DNA of 14,017 nucleotides, taken from NCBI GenBank assembly GCA_014885115.2, contig WKLE02000708.1:1-14017 (forward strand), given 5' to 3'. Source of the DNA: Asterionellopsis glacialis (lineage: Eukaryota; Bacillariophyta; Plagiogrammaphyceae; Rhaphoneidales; Asterionellopsidaceae). Each line of letters begins with the position of its first letter. Within the stretch, counting starts at the first letter, position 1. Both the position numbers and the translations under genes were made by a program. Below, one piece after another: positions 899 through 12,568 of this stretch. A model generated the notes under the pieces. The model was not told the DNA's origin. It made no database searches and saw nothing but the letters and a program-made list of their open reading frames with translations.

Positions 899-1618
899 TC
901 ATTTTTCTGATTTATTTGTTAAAGCTTGTGTTGACGAGTTCTCATCTAAGAATCCTAAAAGGAGCCGCTTAAGCTCTGGTTCTCGACGAAGAATTGTCAT
1001 ATCAATTGTATGCCCACCCTTGTGTGTATATGACTTTCTCGTTGCATCTGTCCAGTACTGCTCCAACTTTGTGCTTTGGTCCAAAATCTGGTCTGTTGCC
1101 CCCTTCAAGTGCAAAGTCGGAATATCAATCCCTTTCGCTGAAAGCCGACGACGGCTCGTTTCCAACCATTGAAGACCACCTGCACATGCAAGTATGGCAA
1201 ATTTCCAAGGGCGGTCCGAAAAATCAAATTGGTCACGCCAAATTGCAGGGTCGGAAAAAATGGTTACCAACGTACAACTCAAAGAAAAGCAATACACACC
1301 GTCATACGGTCCATTCTCTCTGAGATGATTTGCTAAATACTCCAAGCTATTCTCCAAGGATTCCTGTGCAACTGACGAGACGTCGACCCATGTGTACCAC
1401 GGTCCGTTCGAAAAGAGTGCGAGGCCATCTCCTGCTTTTCCAGGATACGGCCCATGTAAAAAATCGCATTTTGCACGCTTGTCGAGCTCTAAACCAAAAA
1501 TTTGCATTTCGGTGATCTCGTTACACGAATTATGCCCGTGCAAGCACAGTATTCGAGGTCTAAATGATGTCCCATCTTTTCCCTTGGAGCTCTCTGAACT
1601 TTGCCCTTTATTCATCAT
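899..1618 (-). CDS. FSH1/OVCA2-type serine hydrolase, altered nucleophile elbow
   Basis: This intact frame of 239 aa has no intron and two adjacent Met codons at its start. RPRILCLHGHNS at residues 20-31 is the first strand and oxyanion-loop region typical of the FSH1 family (alpha/beta hydrolases). FLHGPYPG (53-60) and GPWYTW (72-77) also fit the family. The catalytic triad can be assigned as Ser112 in YCFSLSC, Asp176 in KGATDQILDQST and His203 in HKGGHTID. The family's elbow is normally GFSQG; here it reads C-F-S-L-S, so both glycines and the Gln are replaced while Ser, Asp and His remain. Members are small esterases or thioesterases with mostly unsettled substrates. No leader peptide is evident, so the protein is probably cytosolic. 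The C-terminal 15 residues are polar and low in complexity. Family assignment is firm; activity is uncertain. Confidence 0.85.
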   Translation of the reverse strand: MMNKGQSSESSKGKDGTSFRPRILCLHGHNSCNEITEMQIFGLELDKRAKCDFLHGPYPGKAGDGLALFSNGPWYTWVDVSSVAQESLENSLEYLANHLRENGPYDGVYCFSLSCTLVTIFSDPAIWRDQFDFSDRPWKFAILACAGGLQWLETSRRRLSAKGIDIPTLHLKGATDQILDQSTKLEQYWTDATRKSYTHKGGHTIDMTILRREPELKRLLLGFLDENSSTQALTNKSEK

Positions 1619-3441: not shown

Positions 3442-5219
3442 ATGTTGTCTGCAAGATCCGCTTTTGCCCCCGCCATCCGTCGTACAGGTGCAAGGTTCTT
3501 CGCCGCTTCATCCTCAGGGGCTGAATTGAATAAGCACCTCTCTGAAGTAGATCCTGATTTGTGCCAATTGATTGAGCAAGAAAAGGCTCGGCAACGCAAC
3601 AGTCTTGTCCTCATTGCTAGTGAAAACTTCACCAGTAAGGCAGTGCTCGACGCTCTTGGCTCGGTTCTTTCCAATAAGTACAGTGAGGGATACCCTGGTG
3701 CGCGCTACTATGGAGGAAATGAGAATATCGATCAAGTTGAAATGCTTTGTCAGAAGAGAGCATTGGAGGCTTTCCATTTAGATCCGGAAGAGTGGGGAGT
3801 GAACGTGCAATCCCTTTCAGGATCTCCAGCGAATTTCCAAGTAAGTTAGTTTGCTTGATTTTGTCTAAGCATGTTTTGGAGGGTTTTGCTCTCTTGAAAT
3901 ATGTTATCAGGGACTGGTTCGGTTGGTATTATTTTCTTGTTTTTCAGTTTTCAATGGTTCAGAAATTTCTTGAATGTTTAGAAACTGAATTCATTTCAGA
4001 GATATCTACCTGGTAGTCGCATTATTGTTCATTGGATGGGGGGGTTCTGTTATTTCATCGTTGGGAATCCTGATCTCAACCATTTTCTTTTCTTATACTA
4101 CAGGTCTACACTGCACTCCTTGAAACACACGATCGTATCCTTTCCCTGGATCTTCCCCATGGAGGTCATCTTTCGCATGGATACCAGACGGCAAACAAAA
4201 AAATCTCGATGGTTTCACGTTATTTTGAGTCTATGCCTTATCAGCTTGACCCAGCGACAGGCGAGATTGATTACGATCAAATGGAAAAGAGTGCTGAACT
4301 TTTTCGTCCCAAAATGATTGTCGCTGGTGCCTCTGCATACGCCCGACTAATCGACTACGAACGCATCCGAAAAATTGCAGACAAGGTTGGAGCTTACGTC
4401 TTGGCGGACATGGCTCATATTTCTGGGCTTGTTGCTGCTGAGGTCATTCCTTCTTGCTTTCCTTATGCTGACGTTGTCACAACAACTACCCACAAGAGTC
4501 TTCGGGGACCTCGTGGTGCTATGATCTTCTACCGTAAGGGCCAAAAGGGAACCGATAAGAAAGGGAATCCAATAATGTATGATTTGGAAAGCAAAATTAA
4601 CTTTGCCGTTTTCCCTGGACTCCAGGGAGGACCTCATAATCATACGATTGCGGCACTTGCTACTTGTCTCAAACAAGCAAATACTCCTGAGTTTGTCACC
4701 TACCAGAAGCAGGTTCTGAAAAATTGTTCCCGTTTCGCAGACAAGCTCAACGAGTTGGGATACACACTTGTTAGTGGTGGTACTGATAACCATCTTGTCC
4801 TTGTTGATTTGAAAACTTCTCGTGGCATTGACGGAGCACGTGTAGAACGTGTCCTTGAACTTGCGTGTATTGCAAGTAATAAGAACACAATCCCTGGTGA
4901 CACATCAGCCCTGACACCTGGTGGCATCAGAATGGGTACTCCAGCTCTTACATCTCGTGGGTTGGAAGAGGAAGATTTCGCCAAGGTGGCTGAGTTCTTT
5001 GACAGAGCTGTTGCCATAGCGCTCGAACTAAAGAATACTGACCAAGGAAAAAAATTAAAAGGGTTCAAGGAAATGTGCGCAGTCGGGCCTTCAGTTTCTC
5101 CTGACTTGGTACAGCTTCGAAAGGAGGTATCCGAGTTTGCTTGCTCTTTCCCAACTGTTGGATTCAACGAAGACGAAATGGATTTTGAAGGAGAATACAA
5201 CGTCGATTTTGTTGCATAA
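3442..5219 (+). CDS. Serine hydroxymethyltransferase, mitochondrial
   Basis: Two exons, 3442-3840 and 4104-5219, flank a 263-nt phase-0 intron (GTAAGT...CAG). The 504-aa product is the usual length for an organellar eukaryotic SHMT, a PLP enzyme that interconverts serine plus tetrahydrofolate with glycine plus methylene-tetrahydrofolate. Visible family motifs are LIASENF (57-63), [17 protein letters not shown] (81-97), [11 protein letters not shown] (149-159), [10 protein letters not shown] with Asp235 and His238, and [13 protein letters not shown] with the PLP-binding Lys264. The leader [20 protein letters not shown] is basic and free of acidic residues, giving a mitochondrial presequence with probable cleavage near ARFFAAS. 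An upstream in-frame TGA at 3400-3402, with no ATG between, fixes the start. SAFAP at 6-10 imitates the diatom plastid motif, but no signal peptide precedes it. A role in photorespiratory glycine-to-serine conversion follows from the family and predicted location. Antisense frames inside exon 2 are shadows. Confidence 0.97.
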
Positions 5220-5612
5220 ATTTACCATGATACCTTTGTTTTGTGTCTACCCATGATTATGCCAATGACACCAAAACAGTTACTTATTTTGAAACCTGTA
5301 AAGAAATTACTATACTGAATATATGTTGAAGTCTTTTTTCGGGAAAAGAAAGGAGCCGGTTGTTCTTTAATTACAAACTTGAAACTTGCCATATTTGGGA
5401 TGAATTGCTGAATTTTTTTGTCTGGAGATTACAGAACATGATCTTGTTGCGATGATGCTCTCTAGAAAATCTTCTAGCCCTTGACAAACAGCGTGTTTCT
5501 GTTGATGATGCTTTTCCTCCTAGCTCTCTTTGTTTATGAAATTTACTGTGGCTTGTTGCACCATTCAACTTCTCATTTGAGATACCAAACAAAACACTTC
5601 AGCTACCGCACG
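5220..5612. other. 3' flank of SHMT
   Basis: No gene is seen. This transitional sequence is about 40% G+C in the 60-base lines I tallied and still contains CpG (for example near 5340, 5449, 5607 and 5611). It carries another TCTCTAGA at 5459-5466. A 73-codon minus-strand frame at 5371-5592 has no recognisable features. Confidence 0.5.
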
Positions 5613-6640
5613 CTTTTTCAAAGGGAATGAATCAAACCCAAATACAACTTTTCAGGTGCTGCATATATGATCTCACCATGGAAGGCAAAAAATTGTAAAC
5701 TGGGGAGTCTACAGGTGTTGAGCAAGAAGCTAATCTTTAGCATTTTTGTTGTCTTCAAAGCCTATTATATTTCTTTGCTGATTCTATTACTTTGCTGTTT
5801 ATAGGATTGTCTAAGTGACCTATTGTTGGGCAAAAATGTTGCACACAGCACCTGCTCAAGCTAAGATTGTGCATTCATATGCCCAGGATTTCTTCCCATG
5901 TGGATTGCTGGTAGCTCAAAAAAAAGTTTGCATGATGTAGTTATAAATTAGAAATAGTCCATTGCTGATAGACCTTTTTTGTCCTGGTTTCCATGATGTA
6001 CTGATAGCGTCTTGGATACTATTTTTTTCCTGTTTGGCTGGTAACTGGTGCTTGGTTTGAGGTTTGAGATTACTATTCTCTCTGGGCCTGTATTAAAAAA
6101 ACAATACAGCTGCTTGCTGCTGTACTGTTTGTCTTGATAGTGGGTGCAAAGATTGACAGACATGAAGCACATGATTTTTGTTTGCTTGTTGGTGTATCTT
6201 CTTAGGGCAGTTATTATTGTTATTATATCAGAAGTTTTGGAAGTTTGTGTACCTTTCAATAATTTTCTAGTTGTCTTCTACTCTAGTACTATACTAATTT
6301 TTTAGGAGTGATTCTTTCTTTTAATCAATTTTAAGACTTTTTAATTAGTCATCTAGCAATATCAGCAAAATTATTTACTTTCTTCTTGTTTAATATCTCA
6401 AAAATGTTGGACTGGAAGATACACAAGCCATTTTTAAACATCTTTTCTTTAAAAGCCCCATTGTATTAGCAGGTATATAAGAACAGTCTTCTTTAAAAAT
6501 CAACTTTTTTTATGTGAAAAGTGCTTGATAGAATGAATGCATGAATAGAAGCTTAGCTGTTTCTGGCTGTCTCTTACCTTTTTCTATGAAAAATCATTTT
6601 TATGCCATATTGAAAATTTATCATGATAAAAGAGTAGTAG

Positions 6641-6693
6641 TATTATGAAACAGATGATATTATTATGAAACAGATGATATTATTATGAAACAG
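6641..6693 (+). repeat. 20-bp tandem repeat, 2.65 perfect copies
   Basis: The unit TATTATGAAACAGATGATAT is present at 6641-6660 and 6661-6680, and its first 13 bases recur at 6681-6693. The copies are identical, which suggests a recent duplication within otherwise degenerate sequence. Confidence 0.85.
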
Positions 6694-8956
6694 AAATCTT
6701 TTTCTTTGCTTTTTGTGAAATCGTTGTGGTACCATTTAGTAAAAAATACATGAAAAGATTTTATGATCATCATATAAAACAGCAGACAATGCTCACTCCC
6801 TGCAACTTAAATTTAGAAGTACTATACTACTGTGGTAGTAGAATATGGATCATATCCCTTCAGAAAAGAGAAAAATCCAGTTGCATATACAAAATAGGTT
6901 CTAGTTCTTACAGAGGAACCCAATTCTACATTCAAAGAACAAACAAAGAAGAAAAGGTTTCTCATTTCTTGCTAAAAGAGGAGTGGAAAAGGGAAGTACC
7001 AGATTGATTACCATTCCCAAACTAATTTGATAATTTATAGTAAAAAAAATGATAGTCTACAAGAATTTAATATGGGTTGGAAGGATAAAATATGTTCAAT
7101 ATATTGACCTGTCATTAATATGCAGAATGCCTTTTTCATCACCAAAGGGTCTGCTTTATTCACATATTAAAGTACTAGCTAGAGTGCTACCAGTTTACAA
7201 CAGAACTAATATTGCTTAGCTACAGTCATTAACAATAGTTAATTATAAAGAACAGAAGAAGAATTCTGAAGATTGCTTATGATACTATCACAATAAAAAG
7301 AGAATACCCCCCTCAAACATGAACAAGAATGAGTTCAAGAACAAGTACTAAAATTTTAAAAGTATAAGTAGAGCTTTTGGTGACAGAATAATCAATGTAC
7401 AAAATATTTAGCTATACTTTTGGCTTCAAAATAATTCTTAGTAGTAATAACACAAAGCATCATTTGTTCTTCTTTGAACAAATAGACAACAACAAAAGTA
7501 TTGTTCTTAACTAGAAAAGTAAATATTGTACTCCTGGACAAAGTCAAAGAATAAAATTAAAACAAAAAATATCCAGGTTGCAAGGATGAAATTAACCTTA
7601 CTGCTGATACTAAGTATATAGTATTAGAGAAGTGCTGCTTGAGATTATTTTTACCCAGATCTAATATTAGTGTAAGTAGAAATAATGCAAATAACAAGGA
7701 TTGCTAATGTATGAGAGACAACAAGGGACTGATATGTTATACCTGACCAAAAGACCAATCAACATATACAAATAAGATCAGATAGTAGTGAACTTGCTTT
7801 AGTCAGTTTGTGTGGTTTGTGGTTCAATCATTTATTTGGCTGATTCTTAAAATATCAAAATGTACTCTTACTATAACTAAAATTGTAGTAGCAGGACCAC
7901 TTACTACTATAGGATTCTAGTAGAACATAGTGATGGATACTACAAAAGGGAAAAGTGTGTGATGTATTATAATGCAGTATTGGTAATACGCACTGGCATT
8001 GTTTCTATTTTTGGTTTCTTGTTGCAGCATTTAGAAAGTGCATAGTGGATATATTAATGATCAACTTTATATTACTGCTATTCTTTACTTTCTTCTTCCT
8101 GGTATACTATTTTTAAAAGAGAACAGAGATCTTTTTTACTATGTGTGCAAAGTCATCTCCATAATTTGGTAGACAACAACCCTCTAGATAATTAGAGGAG
8201 GAAATCTAAAGAAGCTTGTCTTATGTTCAAACCAGCAATATCTTTCTTACTGCTTTAATAGAAATAAAGAAATAGTACACTCAAGAAAAAAAAATCCTCA
8301 TTAAGCTCTGTAAACTTTGATCTAAAAATATTTATGTATATCAATGGATTAAGGGGCTGATAATAGAAATAATCCAGGGTGGTACTCTAACTGGAAGAAA
8401 TTTTATTCTAAAGTCCCCCATACTTCAATATAGCTATCCTTAGAACAGCATCAATTGCATACTATCAACAGCAGCTCTAGAAAATGAGAGATAACTTATA
8501 ACCTAAGAAGGTAAAAAAATTAAAAGTACTTATTATACTTAATCTTAATTATGCCCTGCCATAATAAAGTATGCACCATGACATTTGATGACTGCAGTAG
8601 AATAGATAAGAAGTGACAATGTCATCCTCCCTTCACATTTTGTGAAATTCTTTGCTCATGATACAATCAACCAAAAGAACAATAATAGTACCACAAATAT
8701 ATTACTAAATACAAAGGAAAACAAAAGAATATAATGTGAGATTATTTTAAATAGAAAAGTACTATTAGTAGTTACAATTAAAGTATAGAACAACAGAATC
8801 TTACATACACAGTAATTACATGATGTGTAGCATTATATGGTAAACTTGAAAATTGCAGTGTTGCTTATATGATAACATCTTTCTCACACACACATTTTTG
8901 AAAATATTGAGTAAATTTTGGCTAAAAAATCTTGAATGATGTCACATAACATAACA

Positions 8957-9047
8957 AATGAGCAATGTTGCTAAGGTTAAGCTTGAAAAAAGGGACCAAT
9001 ATAAGGAATTTCAAGCTTTCCAAAAATTATAGTCCCTGTTGCTCATT
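8957..9047. repeat. Nested inverted repeat inside the AT-rich block
   Basis: The outer arms AATGAGCAA (8957-8965) and TTGCTCATT (9039-9047) are exact reverse complements. Inside them, AAGCTTGAAA (8979-8988) pairs exactly with TTTCAAGCTT (9009-9018) around a 20-nt loop. Together they can form a 91-nt interrupted hairpin. It might be a small folded RNA, a relic of a miniature element, or chance; no flanking target duplication was recognised. Confidence 0.55.
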
Positions 9048-10824
9048 ACTGGTTTTTACTATAGTGATAATAGCATTCAACATTCAACCATATGTTCCAC
9101 CATTTTGCTAGGCAAATGATGTTGTTTAGAATTAATGAAACCACATGGAATACAACAGTAGTGATATGTATTTTGTGAACAATATTTTTCTCATATCTTC
9201 TCTCTTAATATTTATAGGCATGTGTGAGTTGTAAAGAGGAAATATAAATGATCAGATTTCGTACCACACCTCTATAATTCCTGCCTTTAAGCTACAGAGC
9301 TTTAAACTACTTACTTACTCAAGCATATTTAGTGCTAATCAAATTTTATTTTCTATTGACTACCATAGTAATAATTATTACAAAAAATGAATACCCTACC
9401 ATCATGACTAGGCCAGGACCATGAATTATGAATCAAGCATATTTATTTTGCCAAACTGCTGTTGGTACTGCACCATAGAAGCAGGTACCAGAAAATAATT
9501 TGTATGCAATTTTTTTGTCCTCTTGTTAAAGGGTAGATCAAGAACTTGCACACATAGATAACCACAATGGTGGTCATTTTCTTCCATGTAAGCTAAATGA
9601 TATGCTGAATGAACATAATATTATCTTTGGTGTTATTTATAATACAGCGACTGTCATATGTAAGCCATTTTTAATATTCTTTCTTATCAACACTTTACCC
9701 TTATTGCTTATTGGTGCTTCTGTCAAGAAAGAATGGTATTATAACATGATTCAATTGTGGTTGATTAATAAATGTTGGAAAAATTGAGGAAGAGGATAAC
9801 AGATTGATAAATGTTACATTAGTTGCCATTATATGTATGAATTATTCTGCAATTTCTTTTTCTATACTTGAGCAATGTACTAGCAGAAGTACTAATCCAT
9901 CAGTATTCTTTTGCTATTATCCTTCCCATTCCTATTCTAACACTATGTGGACAAAGTAAAGCAATACTACAGTAGGTACACATCACTGATTATTAGAAGA
10001 GCAGCTAGTAGAGAGCAGTATAAACTTTTGCCAAAATTTCCAAATCCATTAAAAAAGACACACTATTTAAAAAAGAAATGGGAAGAAGTATTTGCAACAG
10101 TTTGTGGAATCTAGTAGGTTACCACCAGTTGTAACAGAAGCTACCACATGCCACTAGTAGTTGTGCTGAAATTGTAGTAGAGTGACTACTAAACAGCAGA
10201 AGCAAAGTATAAAAAGTAATAAAGTAGGGTACAACCACCACTAAGCAATGGGAGGAATGAATACTAGCTTTCAGTTCGTCTTTTCTAATTACAGGACTAT
10301 ATGCATCAAGGTCATCATGTAGATATTATCATCCTTAAATTATAAAAAGTGATACAAACACAGAACATAATATTAAACAGACAGTTTATCAATCCTCCAA
10401 AAATGTGATTGCTACTGACAAAGAATCACCCCCAGACAGCATAGTAGTGTATATTGTTTGATTTTTAATATAAGTCAACCCAAACAACCATCAACACACA
10501 TGGTATAAATGCTAAGTTGGCTTTTTACTACTGGCATTTATTATTTGAACCCTTTTATCTAAGACTGAGTAAATTACTTGATAATAACAACTCGATGATA
10601 CATGTAAAGTGTCATAGAAAAAATAAGATACATCAGCAATGGAGATTTGAAGAAGACTTTCATAAAATTTTGGTCCTGTATGCTTAAAGGGAGCAAAGCA
10701 TCTTTGAAAGTCTTATATCCAGAATCATCACTGACCACAAGGAAAGACAAGAAGAATTTTTGTCCTGCCACTGAAAATAAAGAAAATATTAGAGGACCCA
10801 CACAGAAAATCTGGCAGTACATAT

Positions 10825-11119
10825 CGATTGTAAATGCCGCTTTTTGAGTTTGCAGCGTTTTCTTCGAATTATTGAGAATTAATTAGATATTGGTAAGTGC
10901 TCTGCACCACCATTGTTCAGTTGTTGTTTTCAAAGGAGTTCAACCTAACTAGCTTTTTGATCACGTGGGATTAGCCGAAGGTTGAATTACACGTATTTCA
11001 CAAAAATTGGTGCTATACTATCAAATAAATTAGACGTTATGATCTTCAAAACGAAAATGCATTCCATCGGTAACACGATAATGTAACATCACCGAAGAAT
11101 CAAAATCTTGAAGTCCTTT
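10825..11119. other. Right flank of the CpG-poor block, 3' of the 11120-11730 gene
   Basis: CpG returns abruptly here (10825, 10838, 10854, 10865 and many more), although the region is still non-coding. No gene, RNA or repeat was recognised. Confidence 0.5.
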
Positions 11120-11730
11120 TTAGTGACTCTCGTATTTTGCCTCTTCACGGTAGTCGATGTAACGGCCGAAAGCATGATCAGTCAAAATGGATCTACATTC
11201 TTTTTTATTTTCTTTCAAAGATTGAATCGAATCAGTTTGGCTGATTTCGTCTCTTACAAGCGCCAAATCGTGTTGTAGCGATAATGCCTTTTTCAGAACA
11301 TCTCGATTCTCAACAGCTTCGACACTGCAAACACCCTCTACTAAATCTTCACATTCTTTGTTTAAGTTTTCGAGTTCTGGAAAGTATCATGAGGAGGTTA
11401 TTCAAGAAAACATTTAGAACCCTTTCTTCAGTTTAAACATGGTATATGAGAAGATGATTTTCACTACTTACCCTGGATCATTTTAGTCATTTCTTCAAGC
11501 GAGCAACCTTCTCCAGACTCAGCACATGTAACAACCCGGTCCATGTCGAATCCTTCAGAATTGTTTGATATTTCACTCTTGAATTCAAAGTGAACATCGC
11601 GGTAAAAGTCGGTTCTAGCTGTCATGGCCATGGACTTGGCATTTTTATTAGATCGCAAGAGGAGTGTGCCAAAAGATGATCCTCTTTCAAAGATCATGAA
11701 GACCGACAGAAATACTATTGTTGTTTTCAT
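11120..11730 (-). CDS. Secreted or plastid-directed Cys-containing protein, 171 aa, family not recognised
   Basis: Exon 1 is 11730-11472 and exon 2 is 11376-11120, ending in TAA. The 95-nt phase-1 intron has donor GTAAGT and acceptor CCAG. Exon 2 has no ATG and is found only by splicing. Residues 1-20, MKTTIVFLSVFMIFERGSSF, look like a signal peptide. Phe20 at the probable cleavage site, followed by a basic, Ser-containing stretch (GTLLLRSNKNAKSMAMTART), resembles the bipartite leader of diatom plastid proteins, though it is not a full ASAFAP match. The mature part is acidic and probably helical, with Cys69, 76, 95, 103 and 147, and contains CSLEEMTKMIQELENLNKEC across the exon junction. An upstream in-frame ATG at 11829 would hide the signal peptide behind 33 polar residues, so the inner Met is preferred. 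Function unknown. Confidence 0.65.
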
Positions 11731-11911
11731 TGTAGTGCTACCTGCTGGGTTGTCACGTTTAGTTTCGTATGTTTTGTTTGTTCTCTTTCGAATGCTATTC
11801 GAGGGATTGTAGTGTGAAATGCAATACATAAAAATATGATGAAAATTTGGGATCTAATTTTTGAAGTTGAGAGAATGGAAGTGTCATCGTTGTGTGATGT
11901 CAACTTTTCCT

Positions 11912-11977
11912 AGTCCTCTAGATGAAGACACGCTCTCTAGAGAGAGGACTATGTACCTGTAGGGCCTGTACAGGTAC
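11912..11977. repeat. Three adjacent inverted repeats
   Basis: AGTCCTCT (11912-11919) pairs with AGAGGACT (11943-11950). The second arm overlaps CTCTCTAGAGAG (11933-11944), itself a perfect 12-bp palindrome. Directly after, GTACCTGTA (11953-11961) pairs exactly with TACAGGTAC (11969-11977) around a 7-nt loop. Confidence 0.65.
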
Positions 11978-12043: not shown

Positions 12044-12568
12044 TACGGCTGCAGCAATAGTCTTATTAATAATTAGGTCTACTAAGTCCTCTCTCTAGAG
12101 TAGGTATCTGGTACGTCCTCTACTAGAGAGAGAGTTCCTCTACTATCACGCAACGAACCTCATCCGTAGTAAGTAGCCCGAACAAAATCTACCATGTATT
12201 GTCTTGCTGTGGCTGACTTGATCTTGCCAGTCGTGTCAGCGTTACAAAAAAGAATAAAAAATGGTGTCAAGAGAGTCAAGAGGATTGACAGCACCCCTTT
12301 GCTGACGTGGACTACGACTGTGTAGGGAAAGTAAGACGGAAGTGTTTCTCATTTAGTGTTAGGGATATTTGTAACGGGTTCTCGTTTCCTCCACTTTTCC
12401 TCCTCACTTTTTAGATGCGTGTCAAGTTATTATTTTGGATGCCAAGCAATCGTGAGGAGTGCATTCCGATATAATCATAAAAAGAAAGACCGAAAAAGGA
12501 TTCGGATCGAAAGCATAAATTTCCACTGATTAAGATTACAGTATCCCAACAATATCAAGAGTATCAAA

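What the first reader, a model, noticed from the sequence alone, without database searches (positions are those of the whole stretch)
5613..10824. 5.2-kb gene-free block with nearly complete CpG loss
Seen: seven CG in 5212 bp by reading each line. With G+C near 30%, roughly a hundred would be expected by base composition (rough estimate from sampled lines). GpC, TpG and CpA stay common. SHMT exon 1 has 17 CG in 399 bp, and CpG recovers within about 50 bp of the right edge even in non-coding DNA. Known: methylated CpG decays to TpG/CpA. Inference: this domain has been methylated in the germ lineage for a long time, as silenced transposon remains, heterochromatin or centromere-like DNA. Diatom centromeres are known to be AT-rich, but CpG loss is not a described mark of them.
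Basis: partly seen in the sequence, partly recalled or inferred. Interest (0 to 1): 0.75.

Follow-up and report, generated by a model that had tools for sequence, protein, structure and literature searches.

The report
CpG-decayed DNA island in a diatom
Beside a diatom gene lies a 5-kb stretch of apparently non-coding DNA that has lost nearly all its CG letter pairs, most likely because it was kept chemically silenced (methylated) for a very long time, and it is one of many such stretches in this genome rather than something special.

Summary
Window 5613-10824 has 7 CG against 129 expected, O/E 0.05 versus 0.80 and 0.86 in the flanks. The loss is confined to CpG: C/(C+T) is 0.019 before G, 0.34-0.39 before other bases.
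The block is one of many. Fourteen others on 10 contigs have O/E 0.03-0.14; in an unchosen sample 10 of 80 windows of 500 bp, on 3 of 24 contigs, have O/E below 0.2.
Position 8842-9052 is a truncated copy of a ~300-bp transposon-like repeat. Copies on 19 other contigs all sit in CpG-poor DNA. Aligned copies alternate TG with CA at 13 sites, against 0-3 for other double-transition pairs, which points to decayed CpG.
The genome carries cytosine methyltransferases, two laid out like DNMT5. The other ~5 kb of the block shows no other copy and no Pfam match.
Best reading: a long-methylated, silenced island holding at least one mobile-element relic. A centromere is not supported. Methylation itself was not measured. 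The mechanism is ordinary; near-total loss in many blocks of a diatom genome is mildly interesting.

The parts
5613..10824 (.). CpG-depleted, AT-rich, apparently non-coding block (7 CG; O/E 0.05; G+C 31.5%)
   Evidence: no gene found
8842..9052 (+). truncated copy of a ~300-bp repeat with terminal inverted repeats (MITE-like); copies on 19 other contigs
   Evidence: the window copy lacks the left end
5612..5613 (.). left edge of the depletion, ~390 bp after the SHMT stop codon (last CGs at 5607 and 5611); CpG already sparse in those 390 bp
10824..10825 (.). right edge, abrupt: CG at 10825, 10838, 10856, 10865
3442..5219 (+). left neighbour: serine hydroxymethyltransferase, open frames 3442-3849 and 4209-5219 (splice ends not determined), CpG-normal
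   Evidence: (PF00464)
11464..11829 (-). right side: open frame of 121 aa, no Pfam family and no homologue at E<=1e-3; may or may not be a gene

Best explanation
The block is a stretch of intergenic DNA, holding at least one dead mobile element, that was kept CpG-methylated (as silent chromatin) over a long span of cell generations. Methylated C in CpG deaminates to T, so each CpG became TpG or CpA until almost none was left. Shown: CpG-only loss, a transposon-like relic inside, TG/CA alternatives among its sister copies, other similar blocks, and methyltransferase genes in the same genome. Inferred: that the block was and is methylated, that a DNMT5-type enzyme does it, and that the rest of the block is old transposon debris rather than other intergenic DNA caught in the silent domain.
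For: CpG-specific loss: C/(C+T) before G is 0.019, versus 0.394, 0.342 and 0.340 before A, C and T; O/E 0.05. TG/CA alternatives in the repeat alignment: 13 sites, versus 0-3 for the seven other double-transition pairs. Column shuffles gave a mean of 6.3 and a maximum of 11 such sites in 300 trials, and on average 47 CG in the rows (minimum 33) versus 5 observed. All 19 other contigs found with the repeat are CpG-poor around it: 10 in blocks of O/E 0.03-0.14 and 9 with O/E 0.00-0.30 over about 1 kb, against 10 of 80 unchosen windows below 0.2. Two of the 14 other blocks hold a reverse-transcriptase match (C1208, C834). Of stops inside 148 reverse-transcriptase matches 84 are TGA, 45 TAA and 33 TAG, the bias expected from CGA to TGA. 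Methylase followed by SNF2 on one strand at C368 and C1019. Published: diatom methylation is mainly at CpG and on repeats, in stretches up to 30 kb (PMC5124317, passages); DNMT5a loss removes CG methylation and de-represses transposons in Phaeodactylum (PMC9998398, passages).
Against: No methylation data. Only about 211 of 5212 bp are a recognised repeat; no second copy of the rest was found, and PMC8566409 (passages) says intergenic DNA in diatoms is generally unmethylated. Twelve of the 14 other blocks hold no match of the (capped) RVT_1 list. About half of the 13 TG/CA sites would be expected from column composition alone (mean 6.3), and TG or CA sites are commoner than most others in the alignment (46 candidate sites; the other pairs 14-49). 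The reverse-transcriptase age test was mixed: four hand-picked pieces without stops had O/E 0.59-1.10 and four with three or more stops 0.10-0.62, so the classes overlap, and an open 690-aa frame at C1208 has only 0.14. The TGA excess has no codon-usage control. TG and CA excess over composition is moderate (1.27 and 1.24, flanks 1.07-1.20).
Confidence: 0.85

Rival explanations
1. The block is the centromere, or part of it, of one chromosome, and CpG loss is a by-product of its chromatin.
For: AT-rich and apparently gene-free over 5 kb; the CENP-A regions of Phaeodactylum are described as short simple AT-rich sequences (PMC7082073 passages) and have been sought by low G+C (PMC9266582 passages).
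Against: Similar blocks are common: 10 of 80 unchosen windows, and 15 blocks on 11 contigs including the window's. Its lowest 500-bp G+C is 0.262, inside the range of the other 14 blocks (0.206-0.338).
Confidence: 0.04
2. CpG is avoided by selection or by a mutation process other than methylation (for example one tied to AT-rich DNA).
For: Low G+C and low CpG go together across 502 windows, mostly chosen ones.
Against: GpC is 1.20 and C before A, C and T is not lost. Some windows of low G+C have normal CpG: 38 of 155 with G+C 0.31-0.37 have O/E at least 0.5. TG/CA alternatives at the same sites are most simply decay of CpG.
Confidence: 0.05
3. The block is foreign DNA (virus, organelle, contaminant) with its own CpG-poor composition.
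For: Sharp composition change at the right edge; no Pfam match.
Against: It carries a repeat found on 19 other contigs of the same assembly, lies on one contig with a diatom-type SHMT gene, and shows no similarity to phage records (distant mode). Organelle and eukaryotic-virus records were not searched.
Confidence: 0.04

Closest known systems
CpG-methylated repeat regions of diatoms (Cyclotella cryptica, Phaeodactylum tricornutum)
   Same: kb-scale stretches poor in genes and with mobile elements, beside CpG-normal genic DNA; DNMT5-type layout of methyltransferase genes in the genome
   Different: here methylation is inferred from sequence; most of the window's block is not a recognised repeat; near-total CpG loss was not described in the passages read
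CpG decay of methylated mobile elements in other eukaryotes such as vertebrates (recalled)
   Same: CpG to TpG/CpA, TG/CA alternatives among copies, CpG-normal genes beside CpG-poor repeats
   Different: O/E about 0.05, with an abrupt right edge against CpG-normal DNA, in a unicellular alga
Diatom centromeres (Diner et al. 2017; paper not held, known from PMC9266582 and PMC7082073 passages)
   Same: AT-rich, for the most part without repeats
   Different: many such blocks in this genome; no CENH3 evidence
MITEs of the Tc1/mariner kind (recalled)
   Same: ~300 bp, no protein seen, terminal inverted repeats beginning CAGTC next to TA in some copies
   Different: superfamily and target duplication not proven; window copy truncated

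Membership tests
CpG-methylated silent island (diatom type) | CpG-specific depletion | tested here: met
CpG-methylated silent island (diatom type) | decay products TG and CA at ancestral CpG sites | tested here: met
   13 sites versus 0-3; shuffles mean 6.3, maximum 11 in 300; tested in the repeat only
CpG-methylated silent island (diatom type) | mobile-element content | tested here: met
   only ~211 of 5212 bp in the window block
CpG-methylated silent island (diatom type) | CG methyltransferase of DNMT5 layout in the genome | tested here: met
   PF00145 then PF00176 on the same strand at C368 and C1019; RING domain and a single gene model not checked
CpG-methylated silent island (diatom type) | cytosines methylated in the cell | not testable with these tools
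   needs bisulfite or nanopore reads
CpG-methylated silent island (diatom type) | transcriptionally silent | not testable with these tools
   needs RNA-seq
Diatom centromere | AT-rich core that stands out in the chromosome | tested here: not met
   not extreme among 15 blocks; chromosomes themselves not available (1503 contigs)
Diatom centromere | CENH3 binding | not testable with these tools
   needs ChIP-seq
MITE with TA target site (Tc1/mariner-like) | terminal inverted repeats | tested here: inconclusive
   found in 3 of 5 sister copies tested (C1433, C590, C1362), not in C1208 or C198; window copy lacks them
MITE with TA target site (Tc1/mariner-like) | TA target-site duplication | tested here: inconclusive
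   some copies begin TACAGTC or end GACTGTA in the alignment; empty sites not examined

The most novel reading that the evidence does not exclude
Apart from one short relic no second copy of the block's DNA was found, yet it is as completely CpG-decayed as blocks with transposon remains, and its right edge is abrupt. A methylated domain may therefore have been inherited at this place by maintenance methylation (DNMT5-type) for so long that the sequence itself records it, without repeat homology to guide it.
Probability: 0.15. Interest if true: 0.6.

Novelty: new member of a known kind. Interest (0 to 1): 0.33.

Why it matters
If right, CpG observed/expected alone draws a map of the long-term silent compartment in diatom genomes, including those known only from assemblies and never methylation-sequenced. 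In the small unchosen sample here the CpG-poor class makes up 10 of 80 windows, on 3 of 24 contigs. It also warns that AT-richness alone would over-call centromeres in such genomes.

Tried and rejected
Centromere: rejected as an identity because such blocks are common and this one is not extreme. Hidden gene or decayed protein: six frames of the block against Pfam, stops read as X, gave nothing up to E 1; three ORFs gave only a sub-cut-off DsrC match, E 0.14. RNA genes: none in Rfam at gathering scores, no tRNA. Phage-like DNA: no match. Other repeats in the block: three sub-block searches, leaving out 8821-9075, found only the place itself at E up to 1 (that search skips very common words). 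Spacing of the remaining CpGs in the 15 blocks: 206 pair distances showed no clear period by eye, so a linker-methylation pattern could not be seen. AT and GC skew along the block change sign but led nowhere. Homologues of the right-hand ORF: none at E 1e-3. Dropped rows: a 'block' at C311:13903-28610 is a run of N; 2 of 10 sampled contig starts and 3 of 19 sampled 500-bp pieces were N; the repeat at C334 was left out of the alignment (19 of 20 contigs used, window included), and second partial matches on C252 and C1352 were not added; 3 of the 13 TG/CA sites (columns 38, 269, 433) were left out of the ten-site tally because I judged them poorly aligned or mostly TA. Papers on CpG loss in diatoms: the rows listed (20, 20, 20 and 12 of 133, 20, 201 and 141 papers) held none that I recognised as describing it from title and abstract start; that is no proof of absence. 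The Diner 2017 and Huff and Zilberman 2014 papers were not held under the DOIs I gave.

Full report
What was checked. The block 5613-10824 holds 7 CG (O/E 0.05), with flanks at 0.80 and 0.86. 2000 shuffles gave 129 on average and never fewer than 99. The edges are set by CGs at 5611 and 10825. On the right, CpG density jumps at once to 4, 3, 5, 5, 7, then 1 per 100 bp. On the left it is softer: between the SHMT stop codon and 5612 there are 0, 2, 2, 2 per 100 bp. The loss touches only C before G: C/(C+T) is 0.019 there and 0.34-0.39 before other bases.

Where it is. The window is G000:C311:1-14017 of an unnamed 40.3-Mb assembly in 1503 contigs. The left gene is serine hydroxymethyltransferase (PF00464). 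Among the 120 best of 7998 matches shown, named relatives include the diatoms Nitzschia inconspicua (89%), Fragilariopsis cylindrus (88%), Seminavis robusta and Pseudo-nitzschia multistriata (87%); an unnamed metagenome protein is 97% identical. The organism is therefore very probably a diatom, not identified further.

One of many. A two-state segmentation of the DNA around other copies of a shared repeat gave 14 blocks on 10 contigs, 1.1-9 kb as far as fetched (some run off the fetched stretch), with O/E 0.03-0.14. These were chosen because they hold the repeat, so I also took a sample without choice: 8 unmasked of 10 contig starts of 4 kb and 16 unmasked of 19 pieces of 500 bp. Of 80 windows of 500 bp, 10 had O/E below 0.2, 7 had 0.2-0.4 and 63 at least 0.4. 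The 10 lie on 3 of the 24 contigs, C1151, C1302 and C38, so the estimate is rough. Over 502 windows held by then (mostly chosen, a few overlapping) the O/E values form two groups, below 0.2 and around 0.5-1.0.

The repeat. Block position 8842-9052 has 22 further matching stretches on 19 other contigs, at 72-89% identity (a lower bound). Sister copies show an element of about 300 bp. Terminal inverted repeats were found by tool in 3 of 5 sister copies tested, C1433, C590 and C1362, and not in C1208 or C198. Some copies begin TACAGTC or end GACTGTA in the alignment. This resembles a MITE of the Tc1/mariner kind (name recalled, not tested). The window copy lacks the left end. All 19 other contigs are CpG-poor around it: 10 in blocks, and 9 with O/E 0.00, 0.00, 0.07, 0.00, 0.00, 0.30, 0.16, 0.17 and 0.18 over about 1 kb each, 656 bp for the one at 0.30.

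The fingerprint. In the alignment of 19 of the 20 contigs' copies, 13 dinucleotide sites have both TG and CA in at least two copies each. The other pairs of dinucleotides two transitions apart give 2, 1, 0, 3, 2, 1 and 2. TG/CA has more candidate sites than most pairs, 46 against 49, 14, 21, 35, 32, 16 and 22, which explains only part of the difference. Shuffling letters within columns gave a mean of 6.3 and a maximum of 11 such sites in 300 trials, and on average 47 CG in the rows against 5 observed. At ten of the 13 sites, picked by me, TG occurs 59 times, CA 53, TA 13, CG 2 and anything else 19. TG and CA are the two single-step products of CpG, one from each strand, so the simplest reading is that CpGs of the ancestral element decayed separately in the copies. 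The five of these ten sites present in the window copy read CA, TG, TG, TG, TG.

Machinery. PF00145 matches lie at C597, C398, C44, C368, C1019 and C466. At C368 and at C1019 a SNF2 domain follows on the same strand about 3 kb downstream, the layout of DNMT5, the enzyme class whose loss removes CG methylation in Phaeodactylum (PMC9998398, passages). The C398 protein also has a chromodomain match, E 1.9e-5, just under Pfam's cut-off. I did not build gene models.

Mobile elements. The genome has at least 148 RVT_1 matches (150 of 186 candidates scored) and 50 RVT_2 matches; none listed is on C311. Two of the 14 other blocks hold an RVT_1 match (C1208, C834), 12 do not. Stops inside the 148 RVT_1 matches are 84 TGA, 45 TAA and 33 TAG, suggestive of CGA to TGA but without a codon-usage control. 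Four hand-picked stop-free reverse-transcriptase pieces of 350 bp had O/E 1.10, 0.77, 0.66 and 0.59; four from matches with three or more stops had 0.62, 0.10, 0.51 and 0.48; pieces already held gave C1208 0.14 (open frame), C834 0.00 and C1007 0.53. The trend is as expected but the classes overlap, and C1208 goes against it.

What the rest of the block is. No second copy of the rest was found in the genome (the search skips very common words), and no frame matches Pfam. Its origin is unknown: old debris beyond recognition, or ordinary intergenic DNA inside a silent domain. The right flank (10825-11463) has G+C 0.362 and 0.039 CG per bp; losing one G or C per CpG would give about 0.32, near the block's 0.315. 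AT-richness may thus be largely a result of the CpG loss; this is arithmetic on one flank of unknown coding status, not a test.

Centromere. Diatom centromeres are described as AT-rich and have been sought by low G+C (PMC9266582 and PMC7082073, passages). In this genome that mark is common, and this block is not extreme (lowest 500-bp G+C 0.262; the other 14 blocks 0.206-0.338). I found nothing else that speaks for it; CENH3 binding could not be tested.

Verdict. A real, strong and well-placed observation; the likely cause is the known decay of methylated CpG in a silent, transposon-bearing compartment. Methylated repeat stretches are known in diatoms (PMC5124317, passages). I found no paper describing near-total CpG loss there among the rows listed, of which I saw titles and abstract starts only. 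I file it as a new member of a known kind.

Noticed in passing
L019:8282-10000 continuing into L020:1-351 (G000:C1208:8282-10351): An open frame of 690 aa with a reverse-transcriptase domain (PF00078) lies inside a CpG-depleted block and has only 10 CG (O/E 0.14); 13 of 17 arginine codons are AGA/AGG. A frame can stay open while CpG is nearly purged.
   Followed up: partly
L030 (G000:C398, around 28.4-29.4 kb): A cytosine methyltransferase with a chromodomain-like match upstream (E 1.9e-5, just under the Pfam cut-off).
   Followed up: no
window 11926-11955 and 12080-12109: Inverted repeat with 30-nt arms, 80% complementary, 124 nt apart, in CpG-normal DNA.
   Followed up: no
window 6638-6697: Short tandem array, 20-bp unit, about 2.7 copies, inside the block.
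   Followed up: no
window 899-1618 (-): Serine hydrolase of the FSH1 family (PF03959), left of the SHMT gene.
   Followed up: no
G000:C311:14018-28496: The contig reads N directly after the window, for about 14.5 kb.
   Followed up: no
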